A stretch of DNA of 64,000 nucleotides from Gigantopelta aegis. Lineage: Eukaryota > Mollusca > Gastropoda > Neomphalida > Peltospiridae. The notes beneath the pieces are model-generated. The model was not told the DNA's origin. It made no database searches and saw only the letters and a list, made by a program, of their open reading frames with translations. Position numbers and translations under genes: made by a program. The DNA lies in NCBI RefSeq assembly GCF_016097555.1, contig NC_054704.1, positions 44,037,258 to 44,101,257 on the forward strand, read 5' to 3'. Shown here piece after piece: positions 4,283-38,800 of this stretch (within the stretch, counting starts at the first letter, position 1; each line of letters begins with the position of its first letter).

Positions 4283-4569
4283 TTATATTGTCTGAGCGAG
4301 ACCGAGGGGTATAAAACAATTCCCAAACGAGTTTCATAAATTTCGTATGGCACTCCTGCGAATATCATAATTTATTTATTATGATCCACACACTGTGATT
4401 TATAACAAACGTTAAATATGATTGTAATCTCTTGACATTCGAAACATTCAGCTATGCCAATTACAGTGACGTTGAATGATGTCAATTTCAGAAACCGCGA
4501 CTGTCGCAAGCTTGCATCTACTATAGCAACTCGTGACATAGTCGCGACGTCAGAAGTGTGCCATAACAG

Positions 4570-5063
4570 TTAAACTTTATTTTTTTAACGACACAACTAG
4601 ACCACATGTATTTATTAATCATCGGCTATTGGATGTCAAACATTTGATAATTTCGACATATAAGTCTTAGAGAGGAAACCCGCTACATTTTTCCATTAGT
4701 AGCAAGGGATCTTTTATAATTATATACACCATCCCACAGACACACAAACGGACGTGTGTTTAAATAGGCCTACATGAGTGGTCATTAGATCAAATCTGTA
4801 TTCTCCACTCTCGCCCGAGGTGCAATGAGTTAGCACGATCGCCATCAGTTATGGAATCAGTTTTTCCCGTCCCAACCAGTGAGCCTACACAAAAACGCGT
4901 CGACATATAAAAGATCCCTTGATATGTTGCTGCATTATCGGCCAGAGTAGTCTATGTGCTGACAGCTGGTTTTCTCTCGTTCTCACTGTCGACCAAATGT
5001 CAAAATAGCCAGGTGTTAGACACCAAATACCCAAATGCCAAGGTGTCACTAACTAAATATTGG
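4570..5063. mobile_element. Two degraded SINE copies, head to tail inverted
   Basis: 4571-4740 is a minus-strand type B SINE 3' half, with the family landmarks ATCGGCTATTGGATGTCA and GAGAGGAAACCCGC. 4819-5045 is a diverged plus-strand copy that keeps the core AAAAGATCCCTTG. Confidence 0.65.
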
Positions 5064-5526
5064 TTTCCTTTTATTCTTTCATCAATAATAATTCAAATGG
5101 CGTAAAATTCGTATAAAATTAAAGTTAAAAGTATGTTTTGTTTAACGACACCACTAGAGCACATTGATTTATTAAACAACGGCTATTGGATGTCAAACAG
5201 TAATTTTGACATATAGTCTTAGAGAGGAAACCCGCTACATTTGTCCATTAGTAGCAAGGGATCTTTTATATACACCATCCCACAGACAGGTTAGTACATA
5301 CCACGGTCTTTGATATACCAGTCGTGGTGCACTGGCTGGAACGAGAAATAGCCCAGTAGGCCCACAGACGAGGATCGATCTTAGTCTTATAAAATGATGC
5401 CTGCGTACTTCAGACGCAGTGAGGACGGGATGTTGTCCAGTGGTAAAGCGCTCACCTGATGCGCGTTTGGTCTAGGATCAATCCCTGTCGATAGGCCCAT
5501 TGGGGTATTTCTCGTTCTAGCCAGTA
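5064..5526. repeat. Duplicated block containing two inverted type B SINEs (partner at 20207-20668)
   Basis: 5134-5400 is a minus-strand SINE and 5410 onward a plus-strand SINE, joined by a short spacer. The whole block, including non-SINE flank such as GGTTTCCTTTTATTC, recurs nearly identical and inverted 15 kb away. Confidence 0.8.
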
Positions 5527-5745
5527 CTCCACAACTGGTGTGACAAAGGCCGTGATATGTACTATCTTGTCTGTGGAATGCTGCATATAAAAGATCCCTT
5601 GCTGCTAATCGAAAAGACTAGCCTGCTGCGCGGCGTCTCCGAGTTTTCTGTTTCATTGGGGTATCTGTGTCATTCTTAACCATATATCCGGTGCCCTACT
5701 GAGTACGTCGTTAAATAAAACATTCCTTCCTTCCATTACCAGACG
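5410..5745 (+). mobile_element. tRNA-derived SINE, type B
   Basis: The 5' end has a tRNA-like head (GTCCAGTGGTAAAGCGCTC for the A box, then a GGATCAATCCC-like B box). The family body AAAAGATCCCTTGCTGCTAA follows, with a 3' end GTCGTTAAATAAAACATTCC. Confidence 0.8.
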
Positions 5746-5809
5746 CAGAGAAAAAAACATTCACTAGACTGATTCATACGCTTCACGTTATTCCCGAATG
5801 AACGTTAAA

Positions 5810-6117
5810 GTTTGTTTTGTTTAACACCACCACTAGATCACATTGATTTGTTAATTATCGGCTATTGGATGTCAAACATTTGGTAATTTTAACAAGTAGT
5901 CTTAGAGAGGAAACCCGCTACACTTTTCAACTAGTAGCAAGGGATCTTTAATATGCACCATCCCACAGGCAAGATGGTACATACCACAGCATTTGATATA
6001 TCAGCCGTGATGCACTGACTGAAACGAGAAATAGCCAAATGGGCCCACCGACGGGGATAAATCGAAAACCGACCGCGTACCAAGTGAACGCTTTACCACA
6101 GGGCTACGTACCGCTCC
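5810..6117 (-). mobile_element. tRNA-derived SINE, type B
   Basis: This is a full-length minus-strand copy running from the 3' landmark GTTTAACACCACCACTAG to the tRNA-like head near 6117. It ends just before the left TIR of the large transposon. Confidence 0.8.
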
Positions 6118-6128
6118 TTTCCAGCATT

Positions 6129-6440
6129 AGGCCAGGAGCATTAGCCAAAATATAACAAGCACCAGGAAAAAATTAGTAGAAAGCTGAATTTTTCAGGAGA
6201 GCCAAAATCACAAAGTTCTGCAAATTCTATCCTGTGGCATTTAAAAAAAATTCAAGATGGCCGCCATCACATCAAAGAAAAATGGAAAAACTCCAAAAGC
6301 ATCATAACTGCTCAACCACCAGCTCAGAACAATAATTTTAATGTGTAAATTCATATTTGATGTTTGCTGAATCCAATAAAGCTATATACATTTGTCTTTG
6401 AGCTGAGTTAATTAGCATAAATCCAAAATTGCCGCCAACG
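6129..6440 (+). repeat. Left terminal inverted repeat of the 5-kb transposon
   Basis: It matches the reverse complement of 10866-11191 over nearly its whole length, starting at AGGCCAGGAGCATTAGC. Small insertions and substitutions suggest the element is not recent. Confidence 0.8.
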
Positions 6441-8804
6441 AGACCAATATTTGGCTTCGAAATCAAAATATTTGCATAACTTTACAACTATATACTACAG
6501 AAATATTATATTTGCATCTATATACTATAAAAGAGATTCCAATAAGCAATTAAAACCAACTTTTTGACTATTCATACTTAGCTTACATTAGCTTTAGTCT
6601 GGGAAGTCTAATCAATAACATCAGTGTCTGCATCAATAGCATGAGAATTTGTACAGTTGTGTCCACCACAAACAGTGCACAAGATGGTGCACTCCAACCC
6701 GGCCTTGTAACAGCCACACCGTTTTCCACGCCCTTGTAGGCACAGGATATCATTTTCAGCACTTTCTCTGGAGCAACCGACCTGTCATTTTGCATTGGAA
6801 CAAACAGTCCCTCCCTGTACTGCCATCCCCATTCAGTTGGCGACAACTCTTTCGCCTGCTATGATATTTTACAGCTACTGAAGTTGGAGGAAGTGATTCC
6901 AACTTAAAACCAGATGAATATAAAGATGCTTTATGGACAGATCGAAAATACTTGACATAACGATGTTTGTTCAGTGACTTCGATCTAACTGCTCTATATA
7001 GCTTTAGCAGAAATAACTCTCCAACACTTGCTATATCACTGTGAGTGCTGTTAGACTGAGAAAGACACTCAAACAGTCCCAGTTGTCGCCATCAACCTGT
7101 GCAAGAGCCTTCTTCTTCCCTTGATTGTAGAGTGCAGACACTGTAACACCCTATTGCTGCATGTACAAACATCAGGTCTGAGATTGTTAAAGCTGCTTGA
7201 TTTTCACCTATAGAGTGTAATTGCAATGGGTTATGCCCAGAAAGGATATAGAGATTTATGTTTGAGGTGGCCTGTGCAACCATCATCACCAGCAAATCAG
7301 TGTCAGTCGCCACAACAAAATGGGTGAACTGTGTGTTTAGGCAGTATCCATGACAGTTGATGCAAGCAACCAGTCAGCATCTGCGATGCTATGCTTCACA
7401 GTCAGATCTACTCCCTCAATTTTGTCAATCAACGTTTTGATATAGCGATCTTTATTTTTGCCATTCCCCCCCCCAAAAAAAACCCCTAACAACAACAAAA
7501 CAAAAACACTTTTAAGATGTGGTTTTCATTTCCAAATCAAAAACTATATCAGCTGATGTGTTTTGCTGTGTTCGTCGCTGTTGTTCAGGAGATTTTGTTG
7601 AGGTTGCACTGCCATATCCAGCAAACACTAATACAGAGTCTAGCCCATAGTGTTGAAGCACATATGCTACATAGTGGTCACAGACTTGGTAATATGTGGC
7701 ATCAGTAGGCGAAGGCAGGCTTTGGAGGAGGTGACCTCCATCAAGGATGAAGCGTGCGTCATCAGGAAGTTGAAGGTGGACACTTACTTTTGACTTTAGG
7801 ATGTTACCAAGAACACTTTTCGTGTTTTTTTCTCAATCCCTTTATCAAATAAGGAGGGTGGCTGTTTGGCAAACTCGTGAAGGATATAAGCTTCCATCTC
7901 AGAAATATCCTTAATCACACATGTAACCCTCATGAATAACAATGTGCTGTTCACCTCCAACTGAACACCACGGATAGTGATACGTTTCTGTTTTTTTACC
8001 ATTGATGCTGGTCACTCTGCCGTTTCTCTTCAACATCATGTTGGCATACGTTTGCCCAGTAACAGCCAAAGAAGCTTTTATGCTAAGAGCAACAGATTGA
8101 TCCGCATTGACACGCTTCCCAGCAATGACAACACTTGCTAGACAGATCAGCGAGTTATTGTGCTCTCCATAAGAGAATGGAAAATGCATTTCCAGCCAAT
8201 GGAGGAAGGTTTTATAGTCTTTTCTATCTCGGGCTGTGCTACTGGCATGTAGGCATGCTTGTCAGAGGTGTTACTATGCACACCCGTAAAGGTTTCCAAG
8301 GTATCGCAGATCGGAATACAGCGGGGCACAGCATGCACCCATTTGCTCAGTTTGTTGTTTGTAATTCCTCGACCATGTGTCATACCTCCAGAAGTTTACA
8401 GCAATTGCATCAAATCTTGTTCTATTGTTTGGTCACTGAAGTTTCCACTCCAGAATGTATCTGTTCTTCGAATGGTAAAATAACCTCTCTTCTTGAAAGC
8501 ATAATATTGCTCAGCAGACATGATATCCATCAGCCCTTTCATCTGATCAAGGTAGAGACGGGCAGATATTGCATATGCGATGTGACCAGCAGCATGGAAC
8601 AAGGGAATCATTTCGCTGACTACAGGAAGATATAAATCCAAATCCCCAGTGCGCTCTGCTCAGATGAAACGCCTAATGAGGGACACTTGTTTCAAATATT
8701 CAACCCAAAGTTTACCCGTTCTACTTTGAATGGCGGCATCTTCCATCAGATAATCCACAATATGTGTGAACTTTTGGACATATTCATCATTTCCCACAAA
8801 GACT

Positions 8805-9189
8805 GGCCTCGGTGGCGTCGTGGCAGGCCATCGGTCTACAGGCTGGTAGGTACTGGGTTCGGATCCCAGTCGAGGCATGGGATTTTTAATCCAGATACCG
8901 ACTCCAAACCCTGAGTGAGTGCTCTAGGCTCAATGGGTAGGTGTAAACCACTTGCACCGACCAGTGATCCATAACTGGTTCAACAAAGGCCATGGTTTGT
9001 GCTATCCTGCCTGTGGGAAGCGCAAATAAAAGATCCCTTGCTGCCTGTCGTAAAAGAGTAGCCTATGTGGCGACAGCGGGTTTCCTCTAAAAAAATCTGT
9101 GTGGTCCTTAACCATATGTCTGACGCCATATAACCGTAAATAAAATGTGTTGAGTGCGTCGTTAAATAAAACACTTCTTTCTTTCATTG
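8805..9189 (+). mobile_element. tRNA-derived SINE, type A, inserted in the transposon gene
   Basis: It starts CTGGCCTCGGTGGCGTCG (A box) with B box GGTTCGGATCCCAG and ends GTCGTTAAATAAAACACTTC plus a CTTT tail. CCACAAAG occurs on both sides as a likely target duplication. It splits the pseudogene frame. Confidence 0.85.
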
Positions 9190-9474
9190 TCCACAAAGTC
9201 AGTGGGACATTGACCATCCAGCATAACTGGTTCAACAAAGGCCATGGTTTGTGCTATCCTGCCTGTGGGAAGCGCAAATAAAAGATCCCTTGCTGCCTGT
9301 CGTAAATAAGTAGCCTATGTGGCGACAGCGGGTTTCCTCTAGAAAAATCTGTGTGGTCCTTAACCATATGTCTGACGCCATACAACCGTAGATAAAATGT
9401 GTTGAGTGCGTCGTTAAATAAAACACTTCTTTCTTTCATTGTCCACGAAGTCAGTGGGACATTGACCATCCAGC
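8971..9474 (+). repeat. Tandem duplication, 252-bp period, covering SINE 3' half plus host flank
   Basis: Unit 1 (8971-9222) and unit 2 (9223-9474) both run from ATAACTGGTTCAACAAAGGC through the SINE end to GGGACATTGACCATCCAGC, with only a few differences. The duplication therefore came after the SINE insertion. Confidence 0.85.
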
Positions 9475-10865
9475 AGACGTTTATGTATAGCCTGGAGACA
9501 TCCAGGTGTCTGTAGTAATTTGGACACAATGGCTACTGATGACAAGATAAACGCAAAGTGCACGAGCATACGCATGGCCTGTCATCATATGAATGACAGT
9601 ATGTGGAGCATAAACGGTCACCCACAAATCTTCTAAACCACTACCACCCATTACATATTAGTATCCAGTTGACCCCATATACGACATGAGTAAGTGAAAT
9701 CCCCCAAGTCGAACAACAATCTTATTGAGCTCTGGGAAAGACGATATTACAATTCCAATTGCCTTGATGTACAAGGGTTGGTCAAATGTGACAGGACAAA
9801 CACCAAGTGAATGATTTTTGGACAACGTTTGTGCAAAACACAAAGCAGAATAGATAGTTTCAGGTTGAGATGGGTCCTGATTAACGAATGACAAGATCTG
9901 AATATTACTTTTCTCATGATTATCTCCGGTCACAGCATATTGCATGAAGCCACTCCATAATGGACATTGTGAAACAGGGATGCCAAGTGAGAAACTTGCT
10001 AACCAGATACTATTCAAGCATTTGGATACTTTCAGGAGAGGTGGGTTTCGTTTGGGAGGTTAAAGGGTCCCAATCATGATGGACTTCAATCCTGGGGCAA
10101 TGGACATTTTGTTGACCTCTTTCGACAATAGTCATGACTTTCTGAGTTGACCTAGGAATGGCAGGCTGGTCTACTTTCATACCTGTAAGGGTAACACATG
10201 CAATACCACCAAGAGCGTGCAAAGTGCCATGACCTGTAAGGGTTCTAAAATTGATGTCAGCATTGTCAAATAGAAAAGTTACTCAATATCATACAACTGC
10301 TCATCTGTAAGAAATGCATCATACTGACGCTGAACCTCTCTGTAATCATCTGTAAATGATAACATACTCAATATATGAACCAGTTCTTGAGATACCTACA
10401 AGTTGGGTTCTATCTTCTTCATTTATAGTATTAGAAAACAAAGTGTAAATGTCATTTAGCTAATGCTATGCATATTTCCGTATTTGTCCTTATATGGGTT
10501 GGCGGCCATTTTGTTTATTGAAAATCAAATGGAAAAATACTAGCCAATCCTTCAGAAGATACTCCTACAATGCTAAAAGTATAAATTATTGTTGCCTAAC
10601 AAATAAATGATAGTGAAATTAGTAACATATTTAGTTCCCTGGTCAAATAATGTTATAATACAAGTAAACGAAAATTGATACGCAAGGTCAAAATTCACTT
10701 ACAGTGTCATAATTCACAAACATGCTGAACAAAAACAGACATTTTGTGTTTTGCCCTATCTCCATTTATCAATATTGTGTTTGTAAAACCCCTCTTCAGT
10801 TTAATCTATTGTGAATTATGTATTAGTACAGCTCTAAAGTAAAGAAATGCCTGTTTTTTTGGGCC

Positions 10866-11191
10866 GATTATTAGCTTTGTTGGTAGCCATCTTGGATTAT
10901 TTCAGATGGAATTGAAACATATTTGCACCCACTGGATTCAGCACACTCCAAACATGGATTTACACATTAAAATCATTGTTCTGAAACCTGTGGTTAAGCA
11001 GTTATGATGCTTATGACGTTTTCCCATTTATTGCCGATGGTAATGGCGGCCATATTAAATTTTTAAAAATGCGACAGGGTAGAATTTGCAGAACTTTGTG
11101 ATGTTGGTACAGGTATGACTTTCTGGAGCTTTACTGAAAAATTCAGCTTTCTACTAATTTTTTCCAGGTTATATGCTAATGCTCCTGACCT
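10866..11191 (-). repeat. Right terminal inverted repeat of the 5-kb transposon
   Basis: It is the inverted partner of 6129-6440. Its outer end reads GCTAATGCTCCTGACCT on the plus strand. Confidence 0.8.
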
Positions 11192-11226
11192 ACATGACTA
11201 CATCGGTAAATAAATGTAATTAAGGA

Positions 11227-11373
11227 TTGTCTGTTGTTTCTTTTACGTTCATCGGGGTATGAACAAAAAAAATCATCCGCAAACTGTGTGAATCGGCGAA
11301 GCCGTTCTCACATAAGTTTGCGGATGATTTTTTTGGTTCATATCCAGATGAACGTAAAAGAAATAACAGACAA
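11227..11373. repeat. Snap-back hairpin with about 66-bp arms
   Basis: Arms 11227-11292 and 11305-11373 are near-perfect inverted copies, sharing blocks such as TTTCTTTTACGTTCATC and AAATCATCCGCAAACT. The loop contains CGGCGAAGCCG, a small GC-rich palindrome like the one in the 4.2-kb hairpin. Confidence 0.85.
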
Positions 11374-11492
11374 TACTTATATTAAATTTGAATGATACAT
11401 GCTAATAATAACACTAAAACATCATACTTTATTTTGAATTATTTTTTATCCATAAACAATAACGCTCATTAAGACAACTTGCCCATATAAAA

Positions 11493-11651
11493 TGACGTCA
11501 TCACATATGCCGTTCCCTGTCGGATGACGTTACGTTGTAATGAATGTAACAGAAATTTAATTATTCATCGCTGAACGCAAGTTTTATGTGGACACGAGGT
11601 TAAAGGTCACATCATTATGAATGACGTCATAAACGATTACAAATGACGTTT
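11493..11651. promoter_or_regulatory. Cluster of four CRE/ATF-like sites
   Basis: Full TGACGTCA palindromes lie at 11493-11500 and 11622-11629. TGACGTT half-matches lie at 11525 and 11644. Four such octamer-like sites in 160 bases are far more than chance. A splice-donor-like AAAAAAG|GTAAGC follows at 11860. No coding exon can be tied to it, so a promoter role is inference. Confidence 0.35.
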
Positions 11652-11699
11652 ACTTAGCAACCCCATTCGTGTTTCTTTATCCGTGCGGCAGATCAGGCA

Positions 11700-12736
11700 T
11701 GTTCATTTCAGGACGGCGCCTGGTAACGGTAGATGAAAGTTGTATGATAGAAGACGATGGTACCAGACAAATTGTTCGCGGAAGCTCGGCCTAAAGATGA
11801 ACAATATGGAGTATGTGATTCATAGGAAATACAAACTTAGGGATGTAGTTTGAAAAAAGGTAAGCACGAACTAATACATGTACTTTTTTCTTTTTTTTAA
11901 AAATTAAATACAATGAAATCTAATGATTAAATGATAGTAGGAAGCCCAACCTTATCGGTAAGGCTTATTTTCACTCCGTCATCCGTGGTGGACGTGAAAT
12001 ACTACTCCCCACCTTTCTTTTCTGTTTTTTTCTGGAACAGTTTAAAGCAATTTAATTGTTTGGCAATGTTTCAATAATTTTGGCTCCTTTTTTTTTTTTT
12101 TTGGATAACCTTTACGTCTCGAATGAATGTAAAAGTTGTAGCGAGACTAACGGATCGAGATTAACGGCGAGAATTACAGTAGCGGGCAAATAACCTTTGA
12201 ATCATGCCCCCTAAATACCTCGCGCCTTTGGCGCTTGTTCAATTGCCCCTCCACCCCCCATGATGTGCACCATGCTACGGGCCTGTAGGATTATTGACAC
12301 CATGTAATTTAAAAAAAAAAGAAAAAAAAGACAACAATCAAGACTCTCTCCTACATAATAGCATGACATGTGTACGAGTCATTAAAAAAGTCATGAAAAG
12401 TCCTAAATGTTGAATATTTAAACCTACGCACGTATGTTTGTGTTTTTGAATGAAGGGGCGTGCCACTGACTATTCCCCTTCCCTCCCTAATATTGATAGC
12501 ACATTGGTTATACTATGGAGTGAAATGCTGATATGTAGTGCATAGTGGGTTCGTATACAAACAAGTGCCCAATTAGACAGTCAGCCCAGATAGTTGTTAG
12601 CTATTTTTATTTAAATGATCAAACATTCATTACGTGATCCGACTATTATAGTCTCCAAATTATAACCCACTTATACTTTCTCCTACATACAACGAAGATT
12701 TATGACTAAACTCTGGTAGGTGCACACGTGCATTAA
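11700..12736. other. Unassigned non-coding stretch
   Basis: Mostly AT-rich. 12180-12290 carries a repeat-like segment (TACCTCGCGCCTTTGGCGC ... ACGGGCCTGTAG) resembling part of the short repeat near 36.4 kb. I see no gene. Confidence 0.5.
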
Positions 12737-35800: not shown

Positions 35801-38800
35801 GTTTTCATATAAAAAGGAGAACGTAGTACGTTGTAAGTGAAGCTCACGTCTATGTAAGTAACGATCAAGTGGTCTCAAATAAAAAGAACCCTAAGTTATT
35901 TGTTAAAAGTATGTAACATTTTGATGATTTGTTTTCAACCCAGATGCCATTGCCGTGTGATCCAAGCCTAATACTGTGCTATGTGTCTGATTGTGCTCCA
36001 TCATTAGTTCAGGTTTGTACCAAGAATATGTTGGGTGTTTTTAAAGGGACTGGTCTGAGTTTGCTGCCACTGTAAGTTGATTTTCGCCCCATTTTACGAC
36101 GCTACCTTATCGCTAAAATCGCATAGCCCTTCCCAGCATCCATGAACATTGTGTGGTTAGTTTGTTGTTTTTTAAAAAAATAATTTCAGTTTGATTTGGA
36201 AATAACTTTTTTGTGTGTAAATTTAGAAAGCAATCAGCTCAGAATTAAACAACTTGTGGTGGGCCTACATATATAGGCCTACCATAGAAGAAAATGACGT
36301 TCCCTAATGGGAAGAACTATAAGTGCTTAGGCAAAAATAACAACCGTAACATTTTTGTACGACTGACAGCCCAGGCTCGTAGCCAATGGGGTGGGTGGGG
36401 TGTCGGGGGTCGGTCGACCCCCTCTTCCGGTGGTTATGCAACTCGGGCACTTCGCGCCTTACCATAAGCCTAAACGACCCCCCTCAAAAGTCTGGCTACA
36501 GGCCTGCAGCCCATTTACCAAATGATATGTTTACCATCGCCGTACGTTAAAATCAATATTCAGGCTTACAATAAGTCTGTATCGTAATATTGCAATCGTA
36601 CATTAACGCTAAAGAATTCACAGATATTTCTAAAACAAAATATTAAATTTTAACAAAATGATTAAAATTGGAAGTTTAAAACAACGCTAAAGAAAACACT
36701 AATTGGCGAATTTCATTAGGCCCTATATTTCATTCTTTGGTAATATTGTTGCTGAATGAAGTGATTAAAGTTTGACGGTGTTTATCCACCTCATTAGTCA
36801 AGTTCTTCTTATTAAAAATTACTCTTTCTAAATCGTTTCGAGGACATTATGAAAAAGTCGTCTGCTGAACAAACCGACGAAGGGCAATAACTCTGGTTAG
36901 CTTAATATTCAACGAATCATGCTTCCATGCTATTACTTCGTGGTCTTCAGAACGGCATTGTTGGCTATAAATGGAAATACAGTTGTTACTGAGTAATTAT
37001 ATAAAACTGAGGTTTGTTTTCAGTAAGGATTTTAACACTAATATACTGATTGCAGTAACGTGAGGTTTATGTCCATAATCACATTAAAATTGCTTCATCG
37101 AACGCAGGCGCGTCTTCAGGAAATTATATAAACAAAAGGGGGGAGGGGGGGTGGCGAGCAAAATATTTTAGGGAGATTCGAGTAATGCTCCTCTGGAAAA
37201 TATATTTAAGAAAAGAAGAAAATTCGCTTTGAGCAGGGAAGATTCGTCCCCCTAACCCCGCCCCAGAACATGCGCCTGGAACGGTTCTACATTTTAAACT
37301 CAATCCTAAAATCGATCCTAAGTCACGAACGTTGATTGTAGCTATAATACTTCACATTAAATACATTTTCTTGTTTATAATATTAAAAGTACGAAAGCAT
37401 CAATTTCATATTTGTTTTCTGGTTGTCCCAATGTTTGTAGTTGGATAGCTCAAAATTTAACTCCATGTTACTAAAATATTATGATGCGATAGTTGTGAGG
37501 GCATTTACGCGTACACGTAACTGAACGCACGCATACATATATATGAATACACTCAAAAATAATATATATATATATTTATTTTTGCAACGATACAGTCATT
37601 CGTGGATTACCAACCACGGGGATGTAGCTCAGTGGTAGAGCGTTCGCTTTGCATGTGAAAGGCCCCGGGTTCGATACCCGGCATCTCCATCTGGCTTTGT
37701 TTTTTGTGCTTCATTTTATCTATTAATTATTGCAACACACAAATGTTTATTTTTCTATAATATACATATCTTTTTATTGCCACTTTTTTCCATAATATTG
37801 CAAAATTATGTCATTGAAAACTGTTACATTATGGTGACAAACAAATCGTACTATTTTCTGTTATAACGTTACCTTTGTATAAATCCTAGGCAAACAGCTT
37901 CAGGAAACAATAATAACACAACACATTTTTCACCGTAACAGCACCTCTGGCTTAAGGGAGAAAATTCCACGAATAAAAAAAGAGTAAAGTTTGTTTTATT
38001 TAACGACACCACTAGAGCACATTGATTTTTTTTTATCTTATCATCATCGGCTATTGGATGTCGAACATATGGTCATTCTGACACTGTTTTTAGAAGAAAC
38101 CCGCTGTCTCGACATAGGCTATTCTTTTACGACAGACAGCAAGGGATCTTTTAGTTGCGCTTCCCACAGGCAGGATAGCACAAACCGTGGCCTTTGTTGA
38201 ACCAGTTATGGATCACTGGTCGATGCAAGTGGTTTACACCTACCCACTGAGCGGAGCACTCACTCAGGGTTTGGAGTAGGTATCTGGATTAAAAATCTCA
38301 TGCCTCGACTGGGATCCAAACCCAGTACCTACCAGCCTGTAGACCGATGGCCTAACCACGACGCCACCGAGGCCGGTTCCACGAATAAAGTTAAGTTCCC
38401 CAATAGAAATAAAAATGTAAACAAATTCTTTTTTTCTTTTTTCTGTTTTTGAGAATTGGTAGTATTGGTATTGGGCGACAGCTTTCTAATACAGTGCTTC
38501 TTATTATTACTGTAATAGGTTTTTTCTTCAGAAATACAATATGTGCTTTGTAACTGTAGGTATGCATATTAAACAAAAGAATAAAATCACAATTAAAAAT
38601 AAAATGGTAACTGTCAAGCTTAGTGTTGATTGTGAGAGACAAAACCTGCTGCAGTCAGAGAGACTATTCTTACCACTAGTAGCAAAGACTCTTTTGTATA
38701 CACTTTTCAGCAGACAGTACAATATACACAATGACCTTTGGTATACCAGTCGTGTATAGAATGGAAAGTAAAATAATTGGTCCACTGAAAGGTGTCGACC

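What the first reader, a model, noticed from the sequence alone, without database searches (positions are those of the whole stretch)
6129..11191. Orphan multi-copy protein family found inside a DNA transposon with about 320-bp inverted ends
The minus-strand fragments (HALGGI, TFDQPLYIKA, VVRLGGFH, VYAPHTVIHMMTGHA, TIEQDLMQ, LTHGRGI, DTDLLV, SPTEWGWQ) belong to a protein family I recall as uncharacterised and highly multi-copy in cnidarians, molluscs and arthropods. Here the whole gene lies neatly between long matching TIRs. This suggests the family is the transposase, or core gene, of a little-described DNA transposon group with a PIN-like nuclease segment. The family match is recall; the TIRs are seen directly.
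Basis: partly seen in the sequence, partly recalled or inferred. Interest (0 to 1): 0.78.

Follow-up and report, generated by a model that had tools for sequence, protein, structure and literature searches.

The report
Decayed Academ-type DNA transposon (XPG-nuclease group)
This stretch is a dead copy of a jumping gene, most likely of the little-studied but already named AcademX group, whose single gene joins a transposase-like region to a DNA-repair-type nuclease; it is a new family of a known kind rather than a new kind of element.

Summary
Window 6128-11192 is a 5,065-bp element with inverted ends (~330 nt, 79% identical) and a 3-bp duplication (CAT). Of 18 copies with both ends readable, 16 have an exact 3-bp target duplication, against 10 of 306 mismatched pairings. 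The protein lies between the ends in 19 of 20 fetched copies. Of 6 loci chosen by protein alone, 5 have their own TIR pair; 4 show TAG...CTA ends and 3-bp duplications. Three of the six have open frames of 1,469-1,489 aa. Three uninterrupted insertion sites were found.

A profile of the C-terminal part matches Exonuclease 1 (FEN/XPG family; E = 2.9e-5). Homology to catalogued Academ proteins could not be tested; the DDE (RNase H-like) core is inferred.

Unexpected: this copy belongs to a group of 10 copies whose nuclease has lost one predicted catalytic Asp (Ala in 8, Val in 1, 1 unreadable). Nine of the 10 carry 3-bp duplications, so the lineage apparently kept moving with a probably dead nuclease, perhaps by borrowing activity from relatives.

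The parts
6125..6127 (.). left copy of the 3-bp target-site duplication (CAT)
6128..11192 (-). whole transposon, 5,065 bp
   Evidence: ends defined by comparison of 18 copies
6128..6460 (+). left terminal inverted repeat (TAGGCCAGGAGCAT...)
10860..11192 (-). right terminal inverted repeat (TAGGTCAGGAGCAT... read on the minus strand)
6608..10282 (-). decayed coding region, pieces in three frames, N-terminus towards 10282
10256..10267 (-). DNAD: candidate first catalytic Asp of a DDE core (inferred from conservation)
9778..9789 (-). TFDQ: candidate second catalytic Asp (inferred)
8417..8428 (-). TIEQ: candidate catalytic Glu (inferred)
7734..7748 (-). ILDGG: first acidic motif of the XPG/FEN-like nuclease
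7614..7628 (-). VFAGY: second acidic motif, Asp replaced by Ala in this copy and its group
7370..7384 (-). ADADW: nuclease acidic motif
7296..7310 (-). ATDTD: nuclease acidic motif
6608..6727 (-). C-terminal cysteine-rich tail (GKRCGCYKAGLECTILCTVCGGHNC...) with stop
   Evidence: frame read; coordinates counted by hand from it
8803..9473 (+). tRNA-derived SINE inserted in the coding region (limits approximate), with a 252-bp tandem duplication (8970-9221 and 9222-9473)
11193..11195 (.). right copy of the 3-bp target-site duplication (CAT)

Best explanation
It is a dead copy of a cut-and-paste type DNA transposon, most likely of the AcademX lineage of the Academ superfamily. Shown: matching ends, 3-bp target duplications, many dispersed copies, empty insertion sites for three of them, and one protein that lies between the ends and carries a FEN/XPG-like nuclease followed by a cysteine-rich tail. 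Inferred: the middle part is an RNase H-like DDE transposase (conserved DNxDxN, TFDQPL and IEQ) that binds the ends, cuts the element out and joins it with a 3-bp stagger, while the nuclease trims flaps or strands at the ends. The window copy is neutral debris. Its own lineage had already lost a predicted catalytic Asp of the nuclease and shows no counterpart of the N-terminal zinc-finger-like region of long relatives, so it was probably moved, at least in part, by proteins of better-preserved relatives.
For: TSDs: 16 of 18 copies with exact 3 bp, 10 of 306 in the mismatched control. Protein between TIRs in 19 of 20 fetched copies; the exception, L057, is an 881-bp MITE-like copy. Of 6 protein-selected loci, L059, L060, L063 and L064 have TAG...CTA ends and 3-bp TSDs, L062 a TIR pair with TATA on both sides. 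Empty sites for L057, L060, L063. Nuclease profile A4 to Exonuclease 1 chains, E = 2.9e-5, the best 5 of 7 listed matches; the window's own piece 7512-7832 aligns with that profile (hhalign probability 99.1). TSD of 3-4 bp plus nuclease is the printed description of AcademX (PMC10045372, passage). Curated bivalve Academ elements average 5,565 bp (PMC10294476, passages). Neutral decay: mismatches by codon position 514/473/479 over 21,771 sites in 19 copies, five coding pieces.
Against: No Pfam family reached its cut-off in any piece or frame of this protein that was scanned; the best E-value there was Mab-21_C, 0.0011, in L050, below its cut-off. Pfam XPG_I searched over the genome hit 12 places, none of them a place printed. 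Single-sequence PDB searches found nothing relevant. The DDE region has no credible PDB match (best E = 0.29) and only weak DUF6589 similarity in 2 of 3 members (E = 0.024 and 0.049). No Academ reference protein was available. Of the 6 protein-selected loci, L061 showed one TIR arm only, and L062's flank reads as 4 bp, not 3. 2 of 18 copies have no 3-bp TSD (L051, L054). 9 of 43 close protein hits had no end in the capped lists, and 8 and 10 of the two sets of 40 end hits had no protein hit nearby.
Confidence: 0.85

Rival explanations
1. A DNA transposon superfamily of its own that independently joined a DDE transposase to a FEN/XPG-type nuclease, not related to Academ.
For: No family library hit at cut-off and no reference Academ protein compared. 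TAG...CTA ends could not be checked against published Academ ends.
Against: The two printed hallmarks that could be tested (a nuclease, 3-4-bp TSD) both fit AcademX.
Confidence: 0.1
2. The window's group is autonomous and its nuclease is dispensable, so that loss of one catalytic Asp had no effect on movement.
For: The Ala-bearing group has 10 copies among the 20 coding copies examined, 9 of them with 3-bp TSDs; the exact Ala pattern occurs at 6 genomic places, 5 of them known copies. In the window copy all three candidate DDE residues are kept.
Against: All fetched copies of the window family are broken (no frame of the protein above 279 aa), and mismatches are equal at the three codon positions, as expected for passengers or dead copies. 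Relatives with the Asp coexist. No N-terminal region was found.
Confidence: 0.25
3. The protein is a host gene family that happens to be caught between unrelated inverted repeats.
For: The protein is highly multi-copy in this genome (455 and 1,104 first-look candidates, 150 scored in each).
Against: Several protein subfamilies, 37-65% identical, have their own TIR pairs with the same terminal TAG and 3-bp TSDs.
Confidence: 0.02

Closest known systems
AcademX (Academ superfamily of DNA transposons)
   Same: Encodes a nuclease; 3- or 4-bp target duplications (PMC10045372, passage); ~5-6 kb (mean for bivalve Academ, PMC10294476); TIRs. That the AcademX nuclease is of XPG type is recalled, not seen in a held paper.
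   Different: No sequence comparison with a catalogued Academ protein was possible. The window family shows no N-terminal region of the long relatives and belongs to a group with an altered nuclease active site.
AcademH (Academ superfamily)
   Same: Same superfamily by name.
   Different: AcademH has a helicase and 9- or 10-bp duplications; here the duplications are 3 bp and no helicase was found in two full-length frames.
Exonuclease 1 / FEN1 / XPG nucleases
   Same: The C-terminal domain profile aligns at positions 25-219 with Exonuclease 1 (PDB 3qea and others), including the acidic motifs and the GCD...GIGKKxA stretch.
   Different: It is one domain of a ~1,480-aa transposon protein, and the Pfam XPG_I model did not pick up the elements.

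Membership tests
AcademX | 3- or 4-bp target-site duplication | tested here: met
   16 of 18 copies 3 bp vs 10 of 306 mismatched pairings; of 6 protein-selected loci 4 have 3 bp, 1 has 4 bp, 1 unreadable
AcademX | encodes a nuclease (XPG type by recall) | tested here: met
   profile of the domain vs Exonuclease 1 E = 2.9e-5; weak PIN_4 (E = 0.009) and 5_3_exonuc_N (E = 0.091) hits below cut-off; XPG_I model negative
AcademX | terminal inverted repeats | tested here: met
AcademX | DDE catalytic core homologous to known Academ transposases | not testable with these tools
   no Repbase or Yuan-Wessler sequences; both key papers not held
AcademH | 9- or 10-bp target-site duplication | tested here: not met
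   3 bp
AcademH | helicase in the element | tested here: not met
   no Pfam helicase at E <= 1 in the two full-length frames L059, L060
PIF/Harbinger | 3-bp TWA target (recalled definition) | tested here: not met
   duplications include TGC, GAG, AAC, GCA, CAT, TTT; no Pfam Harbinger domain in L059, L060
CACTA/EnSpm | CACTA-type termini (recalled definition) | tested here: not met
   termini are TAG...CTA

The most novel reading that the evidence does not exclude
A lineage of AcademX-like elements whose own XPG-type nuclease had lost a catalytic Asp (the position matched to the VFDG Asp of Exonuclease 1), and whose protein lacks the N-terminal third of its long relatives, nevertheless spread to at least nine sites with target duplications. 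Either the nuclease is not needed for transposition, or it is supplied in trans by relatives, which would make these coding but dependent elements.
Probability: 0.5. Interest if true: 0.45.

Novelty: new member of a known kind. Interest (0 to 1): 0.35.

Why it matters
I met no held paper that explains how Academ elements move or why they carry a repair-type nuclease (searches, most results seen as listings only). This genome gives a natural experiment (sister groups with and without the nuclease Asp) and several full-length open frames, so the role of the nuclease becomes testable. It also links a large set of proteins with no Pfam family at cut-off to a DNA transposon, which matters for gene annotation. 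If the host is a gastropod, as assembly size and chromosome number suggest, it also qualifies a published statement that Academ is nearly restricted to bivalves among molluscs (PMC10294476, passages).

Tried and rejected
Pfam, PHROGs and single-sequence PDB searches gave no assignment. Two scans of viral contigs, the only outside collection searched for relatives, found none. Pfam XPG_I over the genome did not pick up the elements. Rfam found nothing at gathering thresholds in 4500-12500. The 350-, 231- and 171-aa frames inside the 9.3-kb copy L049 are a nested LINE, not cargo. Junction-spanning matches for L044 (its own element), L046 and L054 (low complexity or AT-rich self matches) were rejected as empty sites. 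Kojima 2020 and Yuan and Wessler 2011 and Muszewska 2017 are not held. Passages only were seen of PMC10045372, PMC10294476, PMC4455052, PMC10799480, PMC12730594, PMC8905726, PMC9004415, PMC8594854, PMC8290104 and PMC7895826.
Full report
Observation. Inverted arms at 6129 and 11191 are real. Global alignment of the 333-nt arms gives 246 of 310 aligned positions identical with 46 gap columns, and a local match of E = 8e-56. Comparison of copies shows that the element begins with T at 6128 and ends with A at 11192, with CAT on both sides. The gene is not whole: pieces fall in all three frames, there is at least one in-frame stop, and a tRNA-derived SINE with a 252-bp tandem copy sits at about 8803-9473.

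Copies. The left end found 40 scored places (115 first-look candidates) and the right end 40 (113) in the window's own genome of 1,149,253,464 bases. Twenty paired copies were fetched. Of these 20 plus the window, 3 (L039, L052, L058) lacked one readable end and were dropped; of the remaining 18, 16 have an exact 3-bp duplication once the terminal T and A are counted as element (L051 and L054 do not). The same test on all 306 mismatched left/right pairings gives 10. Lengths 2, 4, 5 and 6, and the two other offsets tried, give no such excess. The duplicated triplets are varied, so no fixed target is seen.

Protein and ends travel together. The window's protein pieces match inside 19 of the 20 fetched copies; L057, 881 bp, has ends only. 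In the other direction, of 43 genome places matching the protein piece 8396-8659 at 70% identity or more, 28 have both ends within 8 kb, 6 one and 9 none. These are lower bounds, because only 40 of 115 and 113 end candidates were scored; one second piece of a copy already counted was left out, and of the rows below 70% only 12 were used (none near these ends). Conversely 32 of 40 left-end and 30 of 40 right-end hits have one of these protein hits within 8 kb.

More distant relatives. L059, L060 and L063 have single stop-to-stop frames of 1,478, 1,489 and 1,469 aa. L059, L060, L063 and L064 each have their own inverted ends beginning TAG and a 3-bp duplication (TTA, ATA, TAC, ACA). L062 has ends very like the window's (TAGTCCAGGAGCATTAGG) with TATA on both sides; L061 shows one arm only within the 8 kb fetched. 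Uninterrupted sites were found for L060 (inside a tandem array, 98% identity), L063 (79% to a repeat unit in the same locus) and L057 (inside a SINE, 85% to the best SINE copy printed): 3 accepted of 6 junction-spanning results among 22 joined flanks. The other five proteins are 37-40% identical to L059 over what they share; L060 and L063 are 65% identical in the putative DDE region. Frames this long at such divergence imply selection during the elements' active life (inference).

Domains. A profile of four nuclease segments (A4) matches Exonuclease 1 (PDB 3qea and others; human by recall) with E = 2.9e-5 over profile positions 25-219; five of the seven PDB sequences listed are Exonuclease 1, the other two are unrelated at E = 1.5. 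The alignment covers VFDG, the DAD and EDTDLL motifs and GCDTTS...GIGKK. The window's own piece 7512-7832 aligns with this profile. Single-sequence searches were negative or weak, and Pfam XPG_I itself did not pick up the elements (12 places in the genome, none of them printed as an element). At all six places whose open frame exceeds 1,000 aa, one search also lists the nuclease close by on the same strand (starts of the listed matches 1.1-1.4 kb apart). The middle region has invariant ADNVDHN, TFDQPL and IEQ in three members; reading them as a DDE triad is inference. Pfam DUF6589 appears weakly in 2 of 3 members (E = 0.024, 0.049). The protein ends in a cysteine-rich tail, and L059 has CxxC and HxxC motifs in its N-terminal part. 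No tblastn match to residues 1-435 of L059, L060 or L063 (E <= 0.01) was found in the 20 fetched window-family loci or the window; L062 matches residues from about 293 on. A strongly diverged N-terminus would be missed by this test.

Decay and the altered nuclease. In five coding pieces the window-family copies differ from the window by 2.8-9.6%, with mismatches spread evenly over codon positions (514, 473, 479 over 21,771 sites in 19 copies), as for neutral debris. At the VFDGY motif the window copy reads VFAGY. Of the 20 coding copies examined (19 loci and the window), 8 read Ala, 1 Val, 5 Asp, 2 Asn and 4 could not be read; L061 and L062, outside the family, read Asp. On a FastTree tree of the coding DNA of these 20 copies (L061 and L062 fell below the length cut-off, so it is midpoint-rooted), the 8 Ala, the Val and one unreadable copy form one group of 10 with support 0.952. 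Nine of these ten have a 3-bp duplication (L039 could not be scored). Genome-wide, the exact 20-base Ala form occurs at 6 places and the Asp form at 8. That this Asp corresponds to an Exonuclease 1 residue follows from the alignment; that it is catalytic there, and that its mutants are used as nuclease-dead, is recalled.

Comparison with the known. A passage in PMC10045372 states that AcademX makes 3- or 4-bp duplications and AcademH 9- or 10-bp ones, and says that this seems related to the nuclease and helicase they encode. Passages in PMC10294476 give a mean length of 5,565 bp for Academ among curated bivalve elements (100 of them Academ) and describe Academ as almost limited to bivalves among molluscs. 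The original Academ papers tried are not held. The element fits AcademX on the three features that could be tested. I file it as a probable new family of that lineage.

Host. The genome has 1,149,253,464 bases, and chromosome-scale contigs were met up to C15. A passage in PMC7895826 gives 1.15 Gb and 15 pseudo-chromosomes for the vent snail Gigantopelta aegis. The identity is an inference from size and number only.

On recounting I narrowed several statements (4 of 6, not all, protein-selected loci with 3-bp TSDs; nine duplicated sites rather than nine further insertions; only viral contigs searched outside the genome).

Noticed in passing
window 11221-11379: Palindromic repeat right beside the element: 65-nt arms 92% complementary with 29 nt between; looks like a foldback MITE of its own.
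   Followed up: no
window 5128-6113: Several copies in both orientations of a dispersed repeat, apparently a SINE; the MITE-like copy L057 is inserted in a SINE that looks like the same family.
   Followed up: partly
L063 (C8:4871000-4879000) and places listed: Five other places carry the nuclease segment over its whole length at 97-99% protein identity to L063, so this subfamily probably spread more recently than the window's.
   Followed up: no
L049 2178-6030: A LINE (endonuclease, reverse transcriptase and zf-RVT domains) nested inside one copy of the window family.
   Followed up: yes
whole genome G000: 1,104 first-look candidates (150 scored) for the Academ-type nuclease in what is probably a gastropod, against a published statement that Academ is almost limited to bivalves among molluscs (PMC10294476).
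   Followed up: partly
window 37618-37689: ARAGORN reports a tRNA-Ala(TGC); it may be a true gene or a SINE head.
   Followed up: no
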